22,492 nucleotides of DNA from a virus: positions 1 to 22,492 of the IMG/VR virus record IMGVR_UViG_3300009181_000381; one strand, 5' to 3'. The notes beneath the pieces were generated by a model that worked only from the letters and a program-made list of their open reading frames with translations, had not been told where the DNA came from and did no database searches. The position numbers and the translations under genes were made by a program. The first letter of the stretch is position 1. Each line of letters starts with the position of its first letter. Positions 2,856 through 16,051 of this stretch are shown here, piece by piece.

Positions 2856-4151
2856 ATGTCACAAACACCAGAGGATGCACTATTGGAAAAAATTAAATCC
2901 GATACCATCAAAAATTTTAAAGAGTTAGTAAACAACGATCCGGAAATCAAAGAATTGAAATCGTTATCTGAAAAAATCAAATCAGCAACAACTGATCAGG
3001 ATATTGCAGATTGCAAAAAATCCATTGAGGAAGTTGGATTGATGATCAAATCATTGAAGGAAAACCAATCAGCCAAAACCAAATCAACAGGATTTGCTGA
3101 TAACCTGTGGAACAGTTACAAGGCAATGTTTGATGCCGGTAAGATCGGAACAAAAAATGCTGATGGTGAATTCACAATCAAAATTGGCAAAGGATCATTT
3201 GAATCAATGGAATTCAAATCAGCCGGTACAATCACAGAAAGCAATGTTACACCTGTTGGTACCAATGCAATACCATTTACATTGGCTGATTACATGCCAA
3301 ATTATATTGGAATATCGCGCAGAAATCCATTTATTGTACAGTTGTGCAATTTGGGTAGAACAGCCAAAAGATATATCCAATTGGTTGAGGTTGCAAATCC
3401 AGATGGAGGCGCATCAACAACATCAGAGGGATCAGCAAAAACACAACAGGATTTTGATCTGGTTGAAAAGTCAGCAACAGTTCAGAAAATGACATCATAT
3501 GTGAAAGCATCCAAAGAATCATTGGATGATATACCATACATGGAATCATTGATCCGGTCACAGTTGATGGAATTGGTTATCCTTAAATTGGATGCACAGG
3601 TATTGGGTGGTGATGGATCTGCACCAAATCTGAATGGTATCTTAACACAAGCAACCACATTTTCAGCAGGGACATTTGCAAATGCTGTTGATTATGCAAA
3701 CAGATTTGATGTGTTGCGTGTAGCGGTTAATCAGATTGAAATTGCAAGCGGTGGAGATACTAACTTCTCTGCGAACTTTGTGCCTAACTATATCGTGTTG
3801 CACCCTACAGATGTTACAGCGATGGAATTAACAAAGAGTACCCAAGGTGTTTACCTCCTTCCTCCTTTTATGTCAGTTGATGGTAATGTAATATCTGGAT
3901 GTCGTGTTATTGCAAACACAGGTATCACAGCAGGAACATTTTTGGTTGGTGATTTCAGTAAGGCATTTGTAAAAATGCGCGAGGATGCAATGATTAGTGT
4001 TGGATATGAGAATGATGATTTCACAAAAAATTTAGTTACAATTTTATGTGAAACAAGGGCAGTCATTTATATCCCATCAAACTATTTAAAGGCATTTGTT
4101 ACAGGATCATTCAGCACAGCATTGGCATCATTGAAGAATACATTGAGTTAA
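2856..4151 (+). CDS. Major capsid protein, HK97 fold
   Basis: A 431-residue protein. Residues 1-75 are charged and helical, fitting the internal scaffolding (delta) domain that the upstream protease removes; the mature part begins somewhere after about 75-100. Later segments (SRRNPFIVQLCNLGRTAKRYIQLVEV, then KASKESLDDIPYMESLIRSQLMELVILKLDAQVLGGDGSA) match the N-arm, E-loop and spine helix layout of HK97 capsids. NGIL and GCRVIANTGITAGTFLVGDFSKAFVKMRED near 345-375 are the usual A-domain end. Hundreds of copies form the shell. It has its own A-rich leader and is followed by T1. About 3711-3910 uses foreign codons (see separate entry). Confidence 0.9.
   Translation: MSQTPEDALLEKIKSDTIKNFKELVNNDPEIKELKSLSEKIKSATTDQDIADCKKSIEEVGLMIKSLKENQSAKTKSTGFADNLWNSYKAMFDAGKIGTKNADGEFTIKIGKGSFESMEFKSAGTITESNVTPVGTNAIPFTLADYMPNYIGISRRNPFIVQLCNLGRTAKRYIQLVEVANPDGGASTTSEGSAKTQQDFDLVEKSATVQKMTSYVKASKESLDDIPYMESLIRSQLMELVILKLDAQVLGGDGSAPNLNGILTQATTFSAGTFANAVDYANRFDVLRVAVNQIEIASGGDTNFSANFVPNYIVLHPTDVTAMELTKSTQGVYLLPPFMSVDGNVISGCRVIANTGITAGTFLVGDFSKAFVKMREDAMISVGYENDDFTKNLVTILCETRAVIYIPSNYLKAFVTGSFSTALASLKNTLS
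3711..3910 (+). other. Patch of foreign codon usage inside the capsid gene
   Basis: The surrounding genes use almost only TCA, GCA, CCA, ACA and TTG. Within this stretch codons such as TCT, GCG, CCT, CTC and CTT appear together (for example CTCCTTCCTCCTTTT near 3855). The reading frame stays open and the encoded segment (FVPNYIVLHPTDVTAMEL) is a conserved-looking capsid core. This looks like a short recombination tract from a related phage. Edges are approximate, judged by eye. Confidence 0.5.
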
Positions 4152-4261: not shown

Positions 4262-4456
4262 ATGATGAAAACATCAAAAATATCCATTGGGCATAAATTA
4301 AAATCGGATCGCGTATCATTATCATTATCAATATACAGGGTTGCAAAGGATACAGGATTGCAGGAATCACAGATCAAATCAATGGAAAGGGCATCAACCA
4401 ATTATACCATTGATACATTGCACACATATCAGAATTATTTAAACAGTAAGAAATGA
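4262..4456 (+). CDS. Small helix-turn-helix protein (XRE/Cro-like)
   Basis: A 64-residue protein. Residues 22-42 (SIYRVAKDTGLQESQIKSMER) have the layout of an HTH: helix 2 VAKDTG, turn, recognition helix ESQIKSMERA, followed by a further helix TIDTLHTYQNYL as in Cro/C1-type folds. At this length it would be a single DNA-binding domain, probably dimeric. It leads the glycosyltransferase block after T1 and overlaps the next gene by four bases (ATGA), so it may control that block. ATG 4265 is an alternative start. It could equally be a repressor fragment without function. Confidence 0.6.
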   Translation: MMKTSKISIGHKLKSDRVSLSLSIYRVAKDTGLQESQIKSMERASTNYTIDTLHTYQNYLNSKK

Positions 4457-5319
4457 ACATTGTATTAGTTACAGCATTATGGCGCAGACCAGAATTGGCA
4501 AAGATAGTTTTGGAGTATTACAGAAAAACATTTCCAAACATCCAGATCATTGCAGTTGTTACAGATAATGATTTGCAGTTTGGTGTGGATGGTGTTGAAT
4601 TTGTGGAGGCACCCAATGATCCATTGGCGCAAAAGTTTAATAAGGTATTTGAATCAGCAAAAAAACACAATCCTGATGCTGTAATCCTAACCGGATCATC
4701 AGATATTTTATCAGAAAGGTTGATTAATTATTACAAACTTAATTACAACAGCAGATCACCTTATGTATTAGGGTTGGAAGATTTTTATTATTATTCATTG
4801 GCACAAAGGAAATCCATCCATTGGCATGGATTCATGCAGGGTAAGTTTGGCCATTTACCAATTGGTGCAGGTAGGATATTCAGCAGATCAATATTGGATA
4901 AACTAAAATGGAAACCATATGGTGATTTAAAATTGAATAGGGGGTTGGATTGCAATTCATCATTGCATATGGAATCACATGGAATAACACACAGAAAGGT
5001 ATTGATGGCTGATTCGGGACATGCTGTTTGTCTAAAGGATTCCAACATTGCAATCAACAGATTTGATGATTGGAAATTTAATGGGGATGAAATCAGTAAT
5101 GATGATGTGATGATATATTTTTCTGATGTCATTAATAAATATCATGAATTGCAGGTTGATGAATCTAAATTCCCATCAGGAAAAATGATTAAATGTGTAT
5201 TGGTTGTATCCCATGCATATGGGGAATACTTTGGTGAAATAGGGCAGGAAATAATGTTGGAGGGCAGGACAGCATTGGGTATGTACAGAAACAAATTAAT
5301 TGATATCATTAATGAGTAA
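4453..5319 (+). CDS. Putative glycosyltransferase, GT-A-like
   Basis: A 288-residue cytosolic protein. The N-terminus MNIVLVTALWRRPELAKIVL fits the first strand and helix of a GT-A fold. N-D-P-L-A-x-K-F-N at 55-63 and GSSD at 81-84 follow the order seen in GT-A enzymes, where the second supplies the metal/nucleotide-binding acid (DxD-like). The second half (QGKFGHLPIGAGRIFSR) fits an acceptor-side region. Donor sugar and acceptor are unknown. It overlaps the HTH gene by four bases and the following membrane peptide by eight, so the block is translationally coupled. It is probably a modifier of virion proteins or host surface glycans; this is inference from the block's content and position. 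Confidence 0.7.
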   Translation: MNIVLVTALWRRPELAKIVLEYYRKTFPNIQIIAVVTDNDLQFGVDGVEFVEAPNDPLAQKFNKVFESAKKHNPDAVILTGSSDILSERLINYYKLNYNSRSPYVLGLEDFYYYSLAQRKSIHWHGFMQGKFGHLPIGAGRIFSRSILDKLKWKPYGDLKLNRGLDCNSSLHMESHGITHRKVLMADSGHAVCLKDSNIAINRFDDWKFNGDEISNDDVMIYFSDVINKYHELQVDESKFPSGKMIKCVLVVSHAYGEYFGEIGQEIMLEGRTALGMYRNKLIDIINE

Positions 5320-5440
5320 AAGCATAAACAAAATGAATAAAGAGGAAAAAAGCGCAATGAAGTTGGGGGTTATATTCCTGCTGATTGGATCATTGGTTGG
5401 TGGTTTATTTTGGTACATGGTGTTGAATCTCATTTTCTAA
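5312..5440 (+). CDS. 42-residue single-span membrane peptide
   Basis: ATG 5312-5314 opens inside the end of the glycosyltransferase gene and TAA 5438-5440 overlaps the next ATG as TAATG. The peptide has a charged N-terminus (KSINKMNKEEKSAMK), then about 22 hydrophobic residues (LGVIFLLIGSLVGGLFWYMV). A single membrane segment with the basic end likely inside is the simple reading. Tight coupling on both sides and codon use like its neighbours support a real gene. Function is unknown; it may anchor the glycosyltransferases to the inner membrane or act on the host envelope. Confidence 0.6.
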   Translation: MSKSINKMNKEEKSAMKLGVIFLLIGSLVGGLFWYMVLNLIF

Positions 5441-6192
5441 TGAGGGCAACCAGATTTATTATCATTTCATCAGGATACAACTGTGCAGATTATGTATCCA
5501 ATTGCATCAGATCAATACAAAATCAAAGGTATGTTCGATGGAAAGCAATTTTTATATCTGATGGATCAACAGATGGCACAGCATCAGAGATATCAAAAAA
5601 CATCAGAAAAAACAGCAACATGATTGCTGAAATATATTCTGATAATGTTGGTGCATCCAAAAGAAGATATGATGCCATTAAAAAATATTCTGATGATCCC
5701 AATGATGTGATTCTGTTGGTGGGGTTGGATGATGAATTATCCAATGATGCATTGTTTATTATCAATAAGCAATACATTGCCGGTAAATGGATGACTTATG
5801 GAAATTGGAAGGATCAGAATGGTGAAATGATACCACAATCATTTCCGTTAACATTTTCAGATGCTGTTCATGAATCCAGAGAATACAGGAAGGTGGCATA
5901 CAGATCAACAGCACCAAATACATTTAAAAGATTTCTGTTTGATCAGTTGAATGAGGATGATTTTAAAATTGATGGCAAATGGTTTGAATGCACCACAGAA
6001 TCAAATCTGATGTTTTCATGTTTGGAAATGTGCGGTAAAGATAAAATTGGTGTAATAATGGATGCCATATACACATACAATAAGAGAGGCAACCAGATGA
6101 CAATAATGCGATTTGGAAGAATGGAACAGAAAAGGGTATTTGATAATGTTGTAAATAGGGATAAAAAAAACAAATTGATTTATGAATGTTGA
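5440..6192 (+). CDS. Glycosyltransferase family 2
   Basis: A 250-residue protein with a clear GT2 N-terminal domain: FIIISSGYNCADYVSNCIRSI at 7-26, the nucleotide-binding DGSTDGT at 41-47, VGASKRRYDAI at 70-80, and the metal-binding L-D-D-E at 96-99. Such enzymes move a sugar from a nucleotide donor with inversion. I chose ATG 5440, which overlaps the preceding stop and gives the normal GT2 start, rather than the upstream in-frame ATG 5410 that lies inside the membrane-peptide gene. There is no C-terminal membrane helix. It overlaps the methyltransferase by 11 bases. Acceptor unknown. Confidence 0.85.
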   Translation: MRATRFIIISSGYNCADYVSNCIRSIQNQRYVRWKAIFISDGSTDGTASEISKNIRKNSNMIAEIYSDNVGASKRRYDAIKKYSDDPNDVILLVGLDDELSNDALFIINKQYIAGKWMTYGNWKDQNGEMIPQSFPLTFSDAVHESREYRKVAYRSTAPNTFKRFLFDQLNEDDFKIDGKWFECTTESNLMFSCLEMCGKDKIGVIMDAIYTYNKRGNQMTIMRFGRMEQKRVFDNVVNRDKKNKLIYEC

Positions 6193-6736
6193 TGAACAAA
6201 GTTGGAAACAGGCCACATTGAATCTGATTGAAAGGCGAAAATTATGGGGGCATCCTGATGATAACCAGAAAGTTGATAATGTAATCAGGGATTATAAAAC
6301 ACACATATCAAAAGTATCTGTTGGTGCATCAGTATTGGATGTTGGTTGTGGTGGTGGGTACCTGCAACAATGCATTGATGAATCAATTATGTATTATGGG
6401 TTGGATGCATTTCCTGTGAATGATACTGTGATCAATGGAAAAATTGAGGATGATAAAATTGTTGAACAGTTTACTGCACCTAATACAATCATTGATACAA
6501 TTTGTGCATTTGCGGTGATGGATAATTGCCATGATTTTGATTTGGCAATACAGAACATGAAAAAGATTGCACAGAAAAACATTGTATTTTTAACCGGAAT
6601 CAACATTGAGGTGGATCAATATCACACATTCAAACTACAGTTGTCTGATTACAGGAACAGGTTATCAGATTGGAATGAAACATACATTGAGGAATTAATG
6701 CCACAGGTATTTTTAATTGAATACACAAAACCATAA
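6182..6736 (+). CDS. SAM-dependent methyltransferase, class I
   Basis: A 184-residue protein. Motif I is VLDVGCGGGYL at 51-61, followed by the acidic end of strand 2 (YYGLDAFP near 70-77) and a strand-4 region DTICAFAVMDNC near 101-112. The rest is a short Rossmann-type domain with a C-terminal strand pair. Within a glycosyltransferase cluster it probably methylates a sugar or a precursor rather than DNA, as no DNA methylase catalytic motif (DPPY or PC) is seen. The stop abuts the next ATG directly. Confidence 0.75.
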   Translation: MNVDEQSWKQATLNLIERRKLWGHPDDNQKVDNVIRDYKTHISKVSVGASVLDVGCGGGYLQQCIDESIMYYGLDAFPVNDTVINGKIEDDKIVEQFTAPNTIIDTICAFAVMDNCHDFDLAIQNMKKIAQKNIVFLTGINIEVDQYHTFKLQLSDYRNRLSDWNETYIEELMPQVFLIEYTKP

Positions 6737-7639
6737 ATGAAAGTATTATTTATAAATTATTCAGATTACGCAAATCTGTCTTTTAATTTATCGGAAAGTT
6801 TGAAATCTGTTGGTGTGGATTCCCAATGTTTATGCCTGACATCACATCCATTTGGATATGAAAAACAGGGTGTTCATGTTAATCACATTACCATGATTGA
6901 ACAGTTGCAAACTGCTGATCTGGTTATCATCGGACATTCATCACCATATCTGATTGAATACATCCCAAAAGGAAAAAATGTTTGGGTGATGCATACAGGA
7001 ACAGCATACAGGCAGAATCATTTAGGACACAATGAAATTTTCAACTCATTAGTAACCGGCACATTAACTGATTCACCGGAGTTTATGGAATTGGGTGCAA
7101 AAAATATCCATTATGTTGCAACAGCAATTGATACTGATGCCATCCAACCAATCAGGTGTGGTTGTACTGAATTGGTGTTTGCACATTATCCAAACAAGGG
7201 AGGCACAAAGGGAACAGAAAAGATAAAAGAAATGATGTCAGGGTTTGATGTAAAATTTATTGTTGATGAATCCAATGTGCCACATAAAGAAAATTTAAAA
7301 AGGATGGCACAATGTGATGTGTACATTGAATTGTTTGCACCACAGCAGGATGGAAAAATTTATGGATCATTTGGTGTGACAGCATTTGAATCATGTGCGA
7401 TGGGTAAAATAACCATCACCAATTCATTATTCAATGATGTGTACACCACAGCATATGGTGTTGGTGAATTGTGTGTGGCCAATTCAGAGGAAACATTTAA
7501 GGTTTGGATAAAACATTGGATGGATGCATCCAGATTGGAGATCATGAAAAAACAGGATGATGTTAGAAATTGGATTGTTGAAAAGCATTCATATAAAGCC
7601 ACAGGAAATTATTTACACAAAATACTTTCAATTTTATGA
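6737..7639 (+). CDS. Putative glycosyltransferase, GT-B (family 4-like)
   Basis: A 300-residue protein. The N-terminal half (MKVLFINYSDYANLSFNLSESL, DLVIIGHSSPYL, KNVWVMHTGTAYR) is Rossmann-like as in GT-B folds. In the C-terminal half, YGSFGVTAFESCAMGKITIT (209-228) matches the family-4 pattern of a Glu near the donor phosphate followed by a small-residue-rich helix (E-x(3-7)-A-x-G). It would transfer a sugar with retention. It is the last gene of the block; its TGA overlaps the ATG of the decayed endonuclease. Confidence 0.75.
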   Translation: MKVLFINYSDYANLSFNLSESLKSVGVDSQCLCLTSHPFGYEKQGVHVNHITMIEQLQTADLVIIGHSSPYLIEYIPKGKNVWVMHTGTAYRQNHLGHNEIFNSLVTGTLTDSPEFMELGAKNIHYVATAIDTDAIQPIRCGCTELVFAHYPNKGGTKGTEKIKEMMSGFDVKFIVDESNVPHKENLKRMAQCDVYIELFAPQQDGKIYGSFGVTAFESCAMGKITITNSLFNDVYTTAYGVGELCVANSEETFKVWIKHWMDASRLEIMKKQDDVRNWIVEKHSYKATGNYLHKILSIL

Positions 7640-7776
7640 AAGAGATGCAATAAGGGTAAATATGTAGTTGTCGTTGATGATAGTGATTTTGAATGGCTGA
7701 ATAGATTTAAGGAGAAGAATACAATAAATCCGCTAAATTTTATCATGGAGAATTTGCAAGATTGAATTTAATTTAA
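7636..7776 (+). pseudogene. Remnant of an HNH/AP2 homing endonuclease
   Basis: Both ends of a familiar protein survive. ATG 7636 gives MKEMQ then a stop; one base out of frame, 7652-7711 reads KGKYVVVVDDSDFEWLNRFK, the N-terminal signature of HNH endonucleases that carry an AP2 DNA-binding domain. In another frame, 7714-7776 reads EEYNKSAKFYHGEFARLNLI then TAA, the usual AP2 C-terminus of the same proteins. The catalytic middle is missing. So the gene has at least two frame breaks and a large deletion. Codons here (GTC, AGT, CCG) differ from the neighbours. It marks a former selfish insertion at the right edge of the glycosylation block. Confidence 0.75.
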
Positions 7777-7781
7777 TTTAC

Positions 7782-7796
7782 TATTTTTGTAATATG
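7782..7796 (+). promoter_or_regulatory. P2: TAnnTTTG element four bases before connector ATG
   Basis: TATTTTTG (7782-7789) matches TAnnTTTG, with TAAT then ATG at 7794. A TTG at 7762-7764 gives a 17-base spacer, within the range described for Flavobacterium-type promoters, and lies in the endonuclease remnant. This spacing supports ATG 7794 as the true start of the next gene, although that frame meets a TGA ten codons later. Confidence 0.55.
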
Positions 7797-8576
7797 GTTA
7801 TTGTACAAAAATCAGATTTTAATTGATTTCAATTATTAGCGAAATCAAATAACACCAATACTGTATTGCAGTCATATATTGACAGGTATGAAAAGTTGAC
7901 TATTTATCAATTATTGGGTGTTGATTTGGGAAAATTATTCATTGCTGATTTAATACCATCAACAATAACATTGGATGATCGCGGTGATTATGATGCATCA
8001 GTTGGAACATTTCCTGCAACAGGAGGATCAGGAACAGCAGGTGCAATAATGGAGGGTGACTATTGGACAATATCTGTTGCCGGCACATTGGGTACCACAG
8101 ATTATGTGGTTGGTGATCTGGTGTATGCATTGGATGATGCACCGGCACAAACACCAACTAATTGGGCAAAAAAGGAATTAAGATTCACAACCATTTATGA
8201 TGCATTCACATTGCAATCAGATGGTGATACCTATTATGGAAATGATTGGGCAAATTTTTGGGGGTATTGGTGTGGATCAGATTCCGGTGGGATTTATAAT
8301 TCCTATGGTATAAAGGATATTTTGGTGTCAATCATATATTATTATTATGTTGCAGGAACACAGGTAAAACAATCACAATCAGGTGCAGTATTAAACCAAA
8401 CAGAAACAGGTGATATTATGTCACCATTAAATGCATTCAGAACAGCAGAAATAAAATGGAATGAAATTCTGAACAGTATTGGCGCGGTGCAATGGTATTG
8501 CGCAATTTATGATCCTGATACATATCCGGAATACAGGGGTGTGATTTTTAAACCACAGTATTCTGCATTGTTATGA
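7794..8576 (+). CDS. Head-tail connector protein with in-frame TGA and inserted domain
   Basis: Read from ATG 7794 the frame gives MVIVQKSDFN, a TGA at 7824-7826, then FQLLAKSNNT...LQSYIDRYEKLTIYQLLGVDLGKLFIADL. That is the N-terminal pattern of Bacteroidota-phage connector proteins (SDF-x, then LQ-x-YID-x-YE...LLG), which runs across the stop. There is no ATG between the stop and residue 86, so an intact start would have to be non-ATG (TTG 7866 is one). Residues about 65-125 look like a tail-fibre domain inserted into the connector. The frame resumes with RFTTIYDAF and ends with SGAVLNQTE...YRGVIFKPQYSALL as expected. The protein should sit at the portal vertex. Either a mutated gene or readthrough. 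Confidence 0.65.
7986..8168 (+). other. Fibre-type domain inserted in the connector gene
   Basis: About 60 residues (YDASVGTFPATGGSGTAGAI, ISVAGTLGTTDYVVGD, DDAPAQTPTNWA) match a module I know from phage tail fibres, where it repeats as YDAS-x-GTYP-x-GGSGTAGAI...GD...V-x-GTLG...VGD-x-I...D-x-PGQT-x-x-NW. The connector sequence resumes on both sides without a gap. The match is from memory of the pattern, not a search. Confidence 0.5.
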
Positions 8577-8953
8577 TCCGGATACTGATAATGATGATGG
8601 TATTATTTGTTGCCTGTAAAAAGGAAACACCATTGCCTGATCCTGTAAAGGAAAAGGTGTACAATGTTACATTTACATCCTATTCAATAAGCAACAGATA
8701 TTGCATGGTGGTTAATGATACCATTAATCCATCAGGCCATTACATTTATATTGATGCAAATACATTTTCAATCACATTACCATTGTATGAAAAACAATTA
8801 GATCATAATGCTGTACTGTTTAATATTTTGATGTTACCACATGATTCATTATTTTTAAAAGCGGAAAGCAATGAAAGATCCACAGAAAAAGGATTTGGAT
8901 GGAATTGCAATTGCACCACACAATTATTACTACCATTACAAACATTAAAATAA
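8573..8953 (+). CDS. Small lipoprotein within the connector/tail operon
   Basis: A 126-residue protein with a short lipoprotein signal: MIR, hydrophobic ILIMMMVLFVA, then Cys15 (lipobox LFVAC), and KKE after the cysteine. In Bacteroidota, charged residues just after the lipidated Cys influence export to the cell surface; here they are mostly basic, so the final location is uncertain. The mature part is probably beta-rich (VYNVTFTSYSISNRYCMVV) with cysteines at C44, C112 and C114. Overlap with the connector stop (ATGA) and abutment with the next ATG make it part of the late operon. Phage lipoproteins are known to block superinfection (for example T5 Llp); that role is inference here. It could also be a virion component. 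Confidence 0.7.
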   Translation: MIRILIMMMVLFVACKKETPLPDPVKEKVYNVTFTSYSISNRYCMVVNDTINPSGHYIYIDANTFSITLPLYEKQLDHNAVLFNILMLPHDSLFLKAESNERSTEKGFGWNCNCTTQLLLPLQTLK

Positions 8954-11758: not shown

Positions 11759-14042
11759 AGATATAATTAAAAGTGAAGATATTATTGCGCCAAATGTATT
11801 TCAGCCAACCATTGATCAGGCCAAAGAATTGCAGTTGTGGTTGACAAAGTTGGAACAGGGATTCAAATCCATTGCACAAACAACGGCCGGTGGCATATCC
11901 AAAAATGATCCAACATCAATTGATGATCTGAAAAAGCAACAGGAATTAAATGAAAAGTTGGCCAAAACATTGGAAGGTTTAAACGATGTGCAAAAACAAA
12001 ATCTGATCATACAGGAAAAAATAAAACAGTTAACAACAGAAAGGAATAACAAGATAAAACAGGAAGTGATCCTAAGCACACAACTAAAGGGATCATTAGC
12101 ATCATTAAAAGCGGAATTAAATTTAATCAGTAATGCATGGAATAAGGCATCAGAATCAGAGAGGGGAAACGAAAATGTAACCGGATCATTAGCACAAAAA
12201 AAACGGATACTAACTGAACAGATTAAAAAGTTAGAATTTGCCACAGGAAGTTACAGCAGGAATGTAGGAAATTATACCAAATCATTTGTGACATTGGCCA
12301 AAGGATTGGGAGGCATCACAGGTATTGTTGGTGCATTAGGTAATGCCATTGGATTTAATACTGATGCCATTCAGAATGCATCAGCCATTGCACATGAATT
12401 TGTTGCATTCTCAAAGAATGTAAAACATGCAAAGGAATTGGAAACTGTTGCAACAGAAACAAATACTGTTGCACAGGAAACCAATACTGTTGTAACCAAT
12501 ACATCAACAAAGGCCACAGGTGTTTATGGTGTGGCATTAACTGTTGTGTCTGGAATTGCAAGGGCAACAGGTTTATCAATGGCGGTATCATGGGCATTAG
12601 CAACAGCAGGGATATCAGTATTGATTGCCGGCATTGTTGCATTAACAGTTTATTTGAAACACCAGAGAGAGGAAACGGAAGCATTGGCAGAAAAGGAAAA
12701 GGCATTGCAACAGGGCAGGGATTCCAGAGCAGTAAAAAGGGATGCACAGGATCAGATAGAGTTGGATAATATGCAATTCAAATTGGATCGGAGAAAAAAA
12801 GAGGGTGCAACATTGGAGGAAATCAATCAATTGGAAAATCAATTGTTGGATATAAAAATCAGGCAGAATGCGGAGGATGAAATAAAATTCAGACATCCAA
12901 CTGATGATGATGGATTGAAAAAATATCAGGATATTTTGGTGGAGGGCAACAAACTACAAAATGAACAAATCCTGCTGAATGTAAAAGAGGCGAAAACAAT
13001 AAAAGAAAAAAACAAAGAAAAAGAAAAGGAAGTTGATTTGGAGTTGCAGGAATTGGAGTTGAATTATAAGTTGAGAAAACAGGGTGAGGAGGAAAATAAA
13101 TTGTGGAAATCATCACACACTAACATGGCTGTTGTCATTAACGACACAAAAATGTTAACCACAGAATATGACAGGTTGAATAAAACAAGGGCAGGATTAA
13201 TTGGTGATAAATCAAAGTCTGCAAAGGCATCATCAGAAAAGGATTTGGATGAGGAACAGAAAAAGAATTTGAAAAGAATTGAGGATGAAAAAAAAATGGA
13301 GGAAACAATATTCAAAGCATATGCAGATCGTATAATTAAACAAAGGGAAGTTAATGCACAGGAATTATCTGAAATTGAAAGGGGTATTGATGCACAGATG
13401 CAATTGGCTGTTAATGGCCAAAAAAACACATTGGATTTTATGTTGCGCCAAAGGGCAGAGGCATTGGAAAAACAAAAGGCATTAGAAAAAAAGGCCAACC
13501 GACAAAAGGAGGCACAGCAGATTGCGGAATTATTTTTGGAATTTATGAAAGTTTATGCAGGAAAGGATGGTGGATTTGGTGCATCAGCAAAGGCATTAGC
13601 ACAAACAGTTATTGCAAAAGGTATTGCATCAGCAATATCCGGAACATATCATGATGGAACAGATGACACAGGTGATGGTGGAAACATGGATAACAAAGGT
13701 GGTATGTTGGCTGCATTGCACCCACATGAGGGGGTTGTAACCAGATCAGCCAATGAGAAATACAAAGGTGTGGTAAATGCATTGAACACCGGCACATTGG
13801 ATGAATATTTCCGCATGAATTATAATTTAACAGATAGATCAAAATCACAGATTGTTAATGATGCACAAAATATTATGCTATCAAATAAAATTGATCAGTT
13901 GATTGGTGTGGTTAAAAACAAAACTGAATGGCAGATATCAGAAAATTTGTTTGGTGAATTAATAAAGGTGAAAAAGCAAAATGGAATTGTGCAACATACA
14001 ACAGTAAAAAGTTCACCAATAATTAAAAGGAATATCAACTGA
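11751..14042 (+). CDS. Tail tape measure protein
   Basis: At 763 residues the second-largest reading frame here after the 825-codon frame at 16331, with tape-measure architecture: an N-terminal coiled coil (55-165, rich in K/E/Q/L), a hydrophobic part (181-201 and 258-302, the second with several potential membrane helices), a long charged coiled coil (305-600), then a glycine-rich end (GTDDTGDGGNMDNKGGMLAALHPHEGVVTRSANEKYKGVV near 635-675), a tail seen in Bacteroidota tape measures. With about 0.15 nm per residue the tail would be near 110 nm, suggesting a siphovirus. The protein sets tail length and probably helps DNA cross the inner membrane. It ends by one-base overlap (TGATG) with the next gene. 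Confidence 0.85.
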   Translation: MAEDIIKSEDIIAPNVFQPTIDQAKELQLWLTKLEQGFKSIAQTTAGGISKNDPTSIDDLKKQQELNEKLAKTLEGLNDVQKQNLIIQEKIKQLTTERNNKIKQEVILSTQLKGSLASLKAELNLISNAWNKASESERGNENVTGSLAQKKRILTEQIKKLEFATGSYSRNVGNYTKSFVTLAKGLGGITGIVGALGNAIGFNTDAIQNASAIAHEFVAFSKNVKHAKELETVATETNTVAQETNTVVTNTSTKATGVYGVALTVVSGIARATGLSMAVSWALATAGISVLIAGIVALTVYLKHQREETEALAEKEKALQQGRDSRAVKRDAQDQIELDNMQFKLDRRKKEGATLEEINQLENQLLDIKIRQNAEDEIKFRHPTDDDGLKKYQDILVEGNKLQNEQILLNVKEAKTIKEKNKEKEKEVDLELQELELNYKLRKQGEEENKLWKSSHTNMAVVINDTKMLTTEYDRLNKTRAGLIGDKSKSAKASSEKDLDEEQKKNLKRIEDEKKMEETIFKAYADRIIKQREVNAQELSEIERGIDAQMQLAVNGQKNTLDFMLRQRAEALEKQKALEKKANRQKEAQQIAELFLEFMKVYAGKDGGFGASAKALAQTVIAKGIASAISGTYHDGTDDTGDGGNMDNKGGMLAALHPHEGVVTRSANEKYKGVVNALNTGTLDEYFRMNYNLTDRSKSQIVNDAQNIMLSNKIDQLIGVVKNKTEWQISENLFGELIKVKKQNGIVQHTTVKSSPIIKRNIN

Positions 14043-14938
14043 TGGATTATCAATTCAGTATTGATTTTGGATCAGAATATGTTGTGGTGGCACAACCATT
14101 AAATCATTCAGCAATAAAAATTGATGTTGATTTCACATCCGGATCACCATCAGCATCAGTATCATCCATTGCATTTGAATGGGTTGGTGATACAGCAGAA
14201 AAAATAAATACCTATGTGCAACAGGGTTTGTCCGGTGGGCGTGGAATTTATGAGGGGTTAGGATTGCGCATTGATGCCTGCAATCAATCCATTGGTTTTG
14301 ATCTGGTGTTGGATTTGGCGCATAGTGAAACACGAATTGAATGTGATAGGGTAAGTTGTCCAATCATTGAGGCCGGCAGAATTGATTGGATGAATGACAT
14401 TGCAGGATCATTCACATTCTGGTATTTGGCCACACCAATAACAGATGGTGGTGCAGGAATCATAACTGCATCAGATTACAAAGCCACACCATATGTGATA
14501 ACAGAATTACCACAGTACACACAGGTGATCACATTATCAATATCCACATTGTTAATAATATGGCAAACCATTCAGTTGGTGCAGGACATATCAGATTTGA
14601 TTGAAAAAATTATTGGTGACATTTCAGATTTAACCACACAAGTGGGTACAAACATTGGAACATTGATTGTTGACATTTTGATATTGGTTGGCACAGTTGC
14701 ATATACTTACTTAGTTGTAAAGGCATTGATACAATTAATACAGGAAATTGTGGACAATATCATACAGCGCAAAAAATATAAATTGTGTATGCGAATTGAT
14801 GATTTATTCAGAAAGGGATGTCAATACCTAAATCTGAATTTTTCATCGTCAATATTTTCACCATCATCAATTTATTATGATGCCACATGGATGCCACAAA
14901 AAATTGTACAGCCAAATTTAAATTATCAGGCATTTTAA
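14042..14938 (+). CDS. Baseplate-type tail protein, N-terminal part (before in-frame TAA)
   Basis: 298 residues from ATG 14042 to TAA 14936-14938. The start is beta-rich (YQFSIDFGSEYVVVAQPLNHSAIKIDVDF), followed by two strongly hydrophobic helices (about 163-181 and 205-233), then FRKGCQYLNLNFSSSIFSPSSIYYDATWM. The next 90 bases stay open in the same frame and lead into the gene at 15029, so one protein of about 669 residues seems to have been split. The position after the tape measure fits a baseplate hub or distal tail role; the helices might enter the host membrane. Named family not recognised. Confidence 0.65.
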   Translation: MDYQFSIDFGSEYVVVAQPLNHSAIKIDVDFTSGSPSASVSSIAFEWVGDTAEKINTYVQQGLSGGRGIYEGLGLRIDACNQSIGFDLVLDLAHSETRIECDRVSCPIIEAGRIDWMNDIAGSFTFWYLATPITDGGAGIITASDYKATPYVITELPQYTQVITLSISTLLIIWQTIQLVQDISDLIEKIIGDISDLTTQVGTNIGTLIVDILILVGTVAYTYLVVKALIQLIQEIVDNIIQRKKYKLCMRIDDLFRKGCQYLNLNFSSSIFSPSSIYYDATWMPQKIVQPNLNYQAF

Positions 14939-16051
14939 TTATCATTTGACAGGCCAGAGGATGAACTGTCAGGAATCGGAAATCCATATGGATATTATGA
15001 TGGAACATTTAAGGATTTCATTGAGGACATGAAAACATTATTTAATGCTGATATCAGGATTGATAATGGTACAATGTATTTTGAGGAAAAACATTATTGG
15101 AATTTATACAATCCATACATTGTTGATAATACAGATGAAATTGGGTACACCTATAATGCCAATGATCCACATGGAACAAATGCAACAGAATGTCCATCAG
15201 TTTACAATTTACAATTTCAGTTGGATGATTCAGAAATGAATACCATCCACAGATATCAAGGCACAACAGCATCTGTACAGGTATTGCCAAATGTTATTGG
15301 TAATAAAAAACATCTGACATCACAAACAGGTGTGGTTATAACATTCCCCTGTGCATTAGGAAAGCGAAAAGAATATTTAAATGATGTTGAGATTAAACTA
15401 CAAAAATTAATAAATTTTACCCATGATCTGGTATCAGTTGTTGATTTTATTGTTGAGGTTGCAATAAATTCATTGTTGGGATTGCCGGGTGCAGTTGCAA
15501 GTATAATTGCAGGGCATCCAATCATACAGATAAACAATTTGTCCGATAGCATACCAATTGATACATTCAACCAAAGGATTGGTTGGTTGGAATTATCCAA
15601 TGATTCATTCAGCATACCAAAAATATTTGTTGGTACACAGGTTGGCAATGATTGGGAGGTGCATCCAAACAGTTATGAAAGGATGTCAGCACAGGGATTG
15701 TTATATTGGTTTCATGGAAAAAATTTGGCCACCAGAGGAAACCAATACTTAACATATTTTGATAAGGTGTTTAAATTCTGTTGCGCGGATTTTGTGCAGG
15801 TGTTACAATCCAATGTGATGATGGTACCAACAACATCAGGTGGGCATGTGTTTGGAAAGTTTACCAGAATTGTGTGGGATTTGGAATCAGAAATGGCCAC
15901 AGCAGATTACAGGATCAATCAATTATTCACAACCAATTTAACAGAAAGGTTAATTGTTGATGGATTAAATGCAGGTGTGATTGGACAGGGCGGATCATCA
16001 GGTGGCAATGGATCAGGTGGTGGTGGTGGTGGTACACAATGGCCACAGTAA
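14939..16051 (+). CDS. Baseplate-type tail protein, C-terminal part (after in-frame TAA)
   Basis: Same frame as the gene before it. The 30 codons after the TAA (LSFDRPEDELSGIGNPYGYY then DGTFKDFIED) are good coding sequence without ATG; the first ATG is 15029, giving 340 residues from MKTLFNADIRIDNGTMYFEEK. The stretch FKDFIEDMKTLFNADIRIDNGTMYFE crosses the possible restart and reads like a continuous domain of Bacteroidota baseplate proteins. Later there is a hydrophobic region (LVSVVDFIVEVAINSLLGLPGAVASIIAG) and a Gly/Ser end with six GGT codons. If the TAA is real, translation must read through it or restart at 15029. Confidence 0.65.
   Translation, partial: LSFDRPEDELSGIGNPYGYYDGTFKDFIEDMKTLFNADIRIDNGTMYFEEKHYWNLYNPYIVDNTDEIGYTYNANDPHGTNATECPSVYNLQFQLDDSEMNTIHRYQGTTASVQVLPNVIGNKKHLTSQTGVVITFPCALGKRKEYLNDVEIKLQKLINFTHDLVSVVDFIVEVAINSLLGLPGAVASIIAGHPIIQINNLSDSIPIDTFNQRIGWLELSNDSFSIPKIFVGTQVGNDWEVHPNSYERMSAQGLLYWFHGKNLATRGNQYLTYFDKVFKFCCADFVQVLQSNVMMVPTTSGGHVFGKFTRIVWDLESEMATADYRINQLFTTNLTERLIVDGLNAGVIGQGGSSGGNGSGGGGGGTQWPQ
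16016..16033 (+). repeat. (GGT)6 triplet repeat
   Basis: Six GGT codons in frame give Gly6 near the C-terminus of the baseplate-type protein (SGGNGSGGGGGGTQWPQ). Length change would add or drop glycines without shifting the frame, so it is a flexible linker rather than a phase switch. Confidence 0.8.

What the first reader, a model, noticed from the sequence alone, without database searches (positions are those of the whole stretch)
7986..8168. Tail-fibre type domain inserted in a head-tail connector protein
Between FIADLIPSTI and RFTTIYDAF, which are adjacent in ordinary connectors of this type as I know them, lies a roughly 60-residue segment with the fibre-module pattern YDASVGTFP...GGSGTAGAI...VAGTLG...VGD...PAQTPTNW. 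In fibres it is a small beta module on the surface. Here it would be displayed as a ring at the portal vertex, which I have not seen described.
Basis: partly seen in the sequence, partly recalled or inferred. Interest (0 to 1): 0.6.

Follow-up and report, generated by a model that had tools for sequence, protein, structure and literature searches.

The report
Fibre module inside phage neck protein
An uncultured phage has a small piece normally found in tail fibres built into the ring-forming protein thought to join its head to its tail, and relatives carry other pieces at the same or another spot, sometimes exchanged while the rest of the protein stays almost identical; this suggests that the phage neck is a changeable display surface and not only plumbing.

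Summary
The product of 7794-8576 is a connector-type protein encoded downstream of the capsid gene. Between FIADL and RFTTI it carries 76 residues where insert-less relatives have about 5-15. A profile built only from tail-fibre proteins (85 domains) finds this segment at 42.8 bits, E 2e-11; the best of 5,000 shuffles scores 13. The insert is shared only by a small clade (window, L002, L010, L130/L007). L080 has a different module at the same site. Two other lineages carry glycine-rich modules at a C-terminal site, where near-identical cores (97-100%) hold modules only 18-38% identical. Decoration has therefore been gained repeatedly and exchanged. A tail-fibre module in that role, and module swapping there, I found nowhere in the searches made. 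The adaptor role rests on gene order and topology; fold and profile searches found no known adaptor. The insert was modelled only at low confidence. The window copy also has a TGA at codon 11 that its sister contig lacks.

The parts
7794..8576 (+). Connector (adaptor-type) gene; in this copy codon 11 is TGA, open from 7827
   Evidence: homologue L002:5968-6747 is open and 260 aa; about 120 homologues found, typically the next sizeable gene after the capsid
7824..7826 (+). In-frame TGA at codon 11; the sister contig has GGA (Gly) here
7827..7952 (+). N-terminal helical core up to FIADL (long helix and short helix)
   Evidence: AF2 of L002 (pLDDT 74-91) and of insert-less L012 (pLDDT mean 84)
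7953..8180 (+). Site A insertion: 76 residues between FIADL and RFTTI
   Evidence: Alignments with insert-less homologues
7980..8177 (+). Tail-fibre module (KGxWDASxGxxP ... YxVSVAGT ... VGDxxxA ... W)
   Evidence: Fibre-only HMM 42.8 bits, i-E 2e-11; shuffle control 13.0 bits
8181..8207 (+). RFTTIYDAF: return to the core, short helix leading into the beta-hairpin
8217..8291 (+). Trp/Tyr/Gly-rich expansion at the tip of the beta-hairpin before GIKDIL
   Evidence: shared with L010; shorter W- or Y-rich expansions in L216 and L108
8298..8573 (+). C-terminal helical core and C-terminal segment (GIKDIL ... AVQWYC ... YPEYRG)
2856..4151 (+). Major capsid protein (HK97 fold family), used to collect relatives
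   Evidence: PF05065 E 8.7e-30, phrog_10 E 2.8e-39

Best explanation
The gene product is the adaptor (neck-1 type) protein of a siphovirus-like phage of the Bacteroidota-phage kind. Its helical core forms the ring under the portal (inferred). In this clade a small beta module of tail-fibre origin has been inserted into the connection between the second helix and the short helix and beta-hairpin that lead to the next long helix (insertion and homology shown). From that connection it points outward and makes a peripheral ring of about twelve copies at the neck (inferred from Milano gp14 and T7 gp11). Its most likely work is that of other adaptor beta domains: holding the neck to the capsid vertex across the 12:5 symmetry mismatch and stabilising the joint (inferred). 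The recurrent gain of different modules, and the exchange of modules at the C-terminal site while the core stays 97-100% identical, suggest that exposure to a changing partner (a capsid or decoration protein, or the cell surface) matters as well.
For: Insertion relative to many insert-less homologues. Fibre homology from a fibre-only HMM, shuffle control, and independent tblastn hits in fibre-type proteins: Aeromonas phage P5 E 1e-4, a collagen-repeat fibre E 5e-3, a Vibrio phage D239 long tail fibre as a weak hit. The insert evolves with the core: L002 vs L010 53% identity in the insert, 50-58% in the helical core; window vs L002 3 synonymous and 2 non-synonymous codon changes in the insert, 20 and 0 in the core. 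Carriers of module 1 group together (support 0.85) inside insert-less lineages, with L080 and its different insert nearby. Site B: two separated lineages with GxGYxxGD modules; near-identical cores with modules 18-38% identical. AF2 of the insert-less core at pLDDT 84, pTM 0.82 places site A in the short loop after the second helix. Milano gp14 inserts its beta-sandwich (residues 51-140) after residue 50, where it binds the capsid (PMC10491603).
Against: No fold or profile match to any solved adaptor: Foldseek PDB none at E 0.001, HHalign to HK97 gp6 probability near 0. In the full-length model the insert region has pLDDT 32-56, so its fold and direction are not established. Nothing shows the protein is in the virion of this phage; the hattifnatt9-1 homologue and the homologous gp07 of Polaribacter phage Danklef_1 are annotated only as 'structural protein'. 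The window copy has a premature stop.
Confidence: 0.55

Rival explanations
1. The module is a neck-mounted binding domain (glycan or surface receptor, like whiskers or Ig-like domains on heads) that helps the virion stick to the cell or to mucus-like matter, and its exchange reflects changing hosts.
For: The module's home is tail fibres. Site-B modules differ widely between near-identical cores, as expected for host-facing parts. A Trp/Tyr-rich tip lies next to it.
Against: In fibres the module sits upstream of SVxGxxG-type linkers and beside coiled coils, which looks like a shaft or linker part and not a tip. Site-A module 1 itself shows no exchange between window and L002. The R4C authors argue that an adaptor beta domain near the head is unlikely to take part in adsorption (PMC10276861).
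Confidence: 0.2
2. The inserts are tolerated passengers: fibre-module DNA is abundant in phage pools and lands by illegitimate recombination in permissive surface loops, without function.
For: Most homologues do without it; several unrelated modules in two loops; both amino-acid changes between window and L002 fall in the insert.
Against: The reading frame and about 53% identity are kept between L002 and L010, similar to the core; the module is retained in all members of its clade that cover the site (L007 and L130 in part).
Confidence: 0.15
3. The protein is not an adaptor but another head or neck protein (for example a decoration or head-joining protein) of the DUF6712-like family, and the module decorates the head.
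For: No similarity to solved adaptors; 14 of 33 homologues match DUF6712, a family of unknown function, best E 1.1e-5.
Against: Position after the capsid gene, as for HK97 gp6, across a large and varied set of loci; helix-helix-[beta]-helix-loop-helix-C-terminal arm topology resembles class 2 and 3 neck-1 proteins; no other candidate adaptor was recognised between capsid and tail genes.
Confidence: 0.1

Closest known systems
Class 3 neck-1 proteins: Agrobacterium phage Milano gp14, T7 gp11 (also T4 gp13, class 4) (PMC10491603)
   Same: Helical ring protein with a beta domain placed after the second helix (Milano residues 51-140; here residues 54-129 of the L002 product) and a further loop before the last long helix; encoded in the head-neck region.
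   Different: The known beta domain is a capsid-binding beta-sandwich and was reported absent from the siphophage homologues named there; here the inserted part is a tail-fibre module. No sequence or fold match was found, and capsid binding is untested.
R4C and RcGTA adaptors with an attachment domain (PMC10276861, PMC7296036)
   Same: Siphovirus-type neck adaptors carrying an extra beta domain outside the capsid; R4C's is Ig-like and proposed to give local stability; RcGTA's binds capsid proteins.
   Different: In R4C the attachment domain is N-terminal, not inserted; different domain type; one fixed domain, no exchange reported there.
Tail-fibre module KGxWDASxGxFP...VSVAGTV...VGD...W (no Pfam entry found)
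   Same: Significant profile match of the insert; the DAS, VAGT and VGD positions and a late W are kept.
   Different: In fibres it is part of long repetitive proteins beside SVxGxxG, coiled-coil or collagen stretches; here it is inside a small helical ring-type protein.
Structural protein gp061 of Flavobacterium phage hattifnatt9-1, and DUF6712 (PF20459)
   Same: Homologous core by HMM; same place after the capsid gene.
   Different: No module at site A or B; function not assigned beyond 'structural protein'.

Membership tests
Tail-fibre module (profile built here) | Significant match to a profile built only from fibre proteins | tested here: met
   42.8 bits, i-E 2e-11; no connector core in any fibre ORF used
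Tail-fibre module (profile built here) | Above chance for its composition | tested here: met
   Best of 5,000 shuffles 13.0 bits
Tail-fibre module (profile built here) | Fibre context (long repetitive protein, SVxGxxG or coiled coil beside it) | tested here: not met
   Inserted between core segments of a 260-residue protein
DUF6712-like / hattifnatt9-1 gp061 connector family | Homologous core on both sides of the insert | tested here: met
   phmmer and iterated HMM, window E 6.6e-28 in the final round, 4e-39 in the second set
HK97 gp6 / SPP1 gp15 adaptors (Ad1) | Gene follows the capsid gene in the head-to-tail order | tested here: met
   compared with HK97. In the window and its clade a four-gene cassette lies between
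HK97 gp6 / SPP1 gp15 adaptors (Ad1) | Detectable sequence or fold similarity | tested here: not met
   HHalign to HK97 gp6 only, probability near 0; Foldseek PDB none at E 0.001
HK97 gp6 / SPP1 gp15 adaptors (Ad1) | Twelve- or thirteen-mer ring on the portal | not testable with these tools
   No multimer prediction; uncultured phage
Class 3 neck-1 proteins (Milano gp14 type) | Beta domain inserted after the second helix of the helical core | tested here: inconclusive
   Topology agrees in the AF2 models, but the insert is at pLDDT 32-56 and no superposition was possible
Class 3 neck-1 proteins (Milano gp14 type) | Beta domain binds the capsid | not testable with these tools
   Needs cryo-EM or crosslinking

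The most novel reading that the evidence does not exclude
The adaptor ring of these phages is an exchangeable display collar: beta modules drawn from fibre, sheath and baseplate proteins are swapped in and out of two surface loops of one conserved ring protein, so that a ring of about twelve copies of a variable ligand-binding domain sits at the neck and varies between close relatives.
Probability: 0.25. Interest if true: 0.7.

Novelty: new variant of a known kind. Interest (0 to 1): 0.5.

Why it matters
Neck adaptors are usually treated as conserved plumbing. Here one adaptor-type family is decorated repeatedly with modules shared with fibre or other tail proteins, at two sites, and in one group the module is exchanged while the core is almost unchanged. 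That would make the neck a third exposed, evolvable surface besides fibres and capsid decoration, and it gives a natural set of matched proteins (same core, different module) for testing what adaptor beta domains do: capsid attachment, stability or adhesion.

Tried and rejected
Pfam and PHROGs on the insert alone gave only chance matches. PDB sequence search with the insert or the connector profile gave nothing credible. tblastn of the whole connector in the phage records found no relative, so carriers are known only from IMG/VR contigs; two genome-contig scans found none. Foldseek of both models against the PDB was empty; the viral library gave three significant hits, all uncharacterised proteins, two of them longer (235 and 413 aa). 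Reassigned TGA was considered for the codon-11 stop and rejected: the same gene ends in TGA and the sister contig has GGA. A link between the insert and the neighbouring glycosyltransferase cassette was considered: every module-1 carrier covering that region has a 3.3-3.7 kb cassette between capsid and connector, but insert-less L216 has similar genes (one between, three after the connector) and L091 has one, so the cassette does not explain the insert. Origin of the L080 insert: no phage match found, so 'fibre-type' is unproven for that one. A profile test against adaptors other than HK97 gp6 was not made.

Full report
WHAT IS IN THE SEQUENCE. The window is a whole IMG/VR virus record of 22,492 bases. 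It carries a portal (PF04860), prohead protease (PF04586) and HK97-type capsid protein (PF05065), then four genes of a glycosyltransferase and methyltransferase type cassette, then the gene in question, then tail genes up to a fibre. The gene starts at ATG 7794; codon 11 (7824-7826) is TGA and the frame is open again from 7827 to the stop at 8574-8576. The sister contig L002, 99% identical in protein, reads GGA there and encodes 260 residues without interruption, so an intact copy exists and the window copy is either mutated or misassembled.

THE INSERTION. Relatives were collected through the capsid gene and through the connector itself. About 120 homologous connectors were recognised with an iterated profile. 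In the nearest insert-less relatives FIADL is followed after about 5-15 residues by RFxxI; in the window there are 76 residues between them. The same insert is in L002, L010, and partially sequenced in L130 and L007. A second, smaller Trp/Tyr/Gly-rich expansion lies at the tip of the next beta-hairpin.

IT IS A FIBRE MODULE. tblastn with the L010 insert finds Aeromonas phage P5 (E 1e-4), in a long fibre-type protein, and a protein annotated as collagen alpha 1 (E 5e-3), with a weaker match in a Vibrio long tail fibre. A profile seeded only with those three fibre segments and iterated on 80 IMG/VR loci gave 85 domains in 81 ORFs; none of these ORFs contains the connector core. The locus scan that fetched them used an alignment with one connector row, but no connector sequence entered the profile. 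This profile finds the window insert at 42.8 bits, i-E 2e-11, aligned over 7980-8177; the best of 5,000 shuffles of the segment reaches 13.0 bits. In fibres the module stands before SVxGxxG-type linkers, within long repetitive proteins.

IT IS NOT ALONE. L080 carries a different 56-residue insert at the same site; no source was found for it. At another site, before the C-terminal segment, L077/L082 and, far away in the tree, L126-L128 and L224-L246 carry GxGYxxGD modules. One of these resembles Rhizobium phage tail sheath proteins (E 1e-3), and L082 matches a baseplate wedge family (phrog_32294, E 3e-4). Within L227-L243 the core is 97-100% identical in protein and 91-96% in DNA, while modules of different types are only 18-38% identical and differ in length (85 to 184 residues). 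A tree of the core puts the module-1 carriers together (0.85), with insert-less L092 beside them and L080 next (0.90), and separates the two site-B groups. Decoration of this family has thus been gained several times and, at site B, exchanged.

STRUCTURE. AF2 of insert-less L012 (33 sequences) gives pLDDT 84, pTM 0.82: helix 23-43, helix 45-55, helix 62-68, hairpin 71-82, helix 85-102, hairpin 110-121, long helix 123-151. Site A is the short loop 56-61; the Trp/Tyr-rich expansion is the tip of the first hairpin. The full L002 model has a good core, but the insert is at pLDDT 32-56 with predicted strands. Neither model matches a solved structure, and HHalign to HK97 gp6 fails. Calling the protein an adaptor therefore rests on its place after the capsid gene, homology to 'structural protein' genes of hattifnatt9-1 and Danklef_1 and topology.

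HOW IT MOST LIKELY WORKS. In Milano gp14 a beta-sandwich is inserted after residue 50 of the helical ring protein, forms a peripheral ring and bridges the 12-fold neck to the 5-fold capsid; the authors place T7 gp11 in the same class and describe class 1 (HK97 gp6, SPP1 gp15) without it (PMC10491603). RcGTA and R4C have attachment domains outside the capsid. By topology the window's insert is at the Milano position. Shown: insertion, fibre homology, single-clade distribution, conservation with the core, recurrence and exchange in relatives. Inferred: ring, outward display, capsid attachment or stabilisation as the main role, and a possible binding role.

VERDICT. It is a new variant of a known kind (adaptors with extra beta domains). 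The repeated gain and the exchange of modules are more surprising than the single insert.

Noticed in passing
L227-L243 (IMG/VR contigs), connector gene: Module exchange at the C-terminal site: connector cores 97-100% identical, inserted modules of different types 18-38% identical and 85 to 184 residues long.
   Followed up: partly
window 4453-7639; L004, L010, L007, L008, L216: Four-gene cassette (two GT-like genes without Pfam match, one GT2 family gene, one methyltransferase) between capsid and connector genes; conserved in module-1 carriers, rearranged around the connector in L216. It might modify virion proteins.
   Followed up: partly
window 8573-8953; also genes beside the connector in L080 and L014: Small gene with a lipoprotein-type signal (VACKK) inside the head-neck gene block; similar signal-bearing small genes lie beside the connector in L080 and L014.
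   Followed up: no
window 7640-7780: Short ORF remnant (GKYVVVVDDSDFEWLNRF in the window) between the cassette and the connector, resembling the start of an HNH-type endonuclease from memory only; L002 lacks 66 bases here and has 20 others.
   Followed up: no
window 7824-7826: Premature TGA in the connector gene, GGA in the sister contig.
   Followed up: yes
window 14042-16051: Two adjacent genes match successive parts of one PHROG family (phrog_12387, positions 14-276 and 317-451), as if a single tail protein were split in two.
   Followed up: no
BFVD entries A0A6J5SI71 (235 aa) and A0A6J5NA89 (413 aa): Structural relatives of the insert-less core that are 60 and 240 residues longer, so possibly further decorated connectors.
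   Followed up: no
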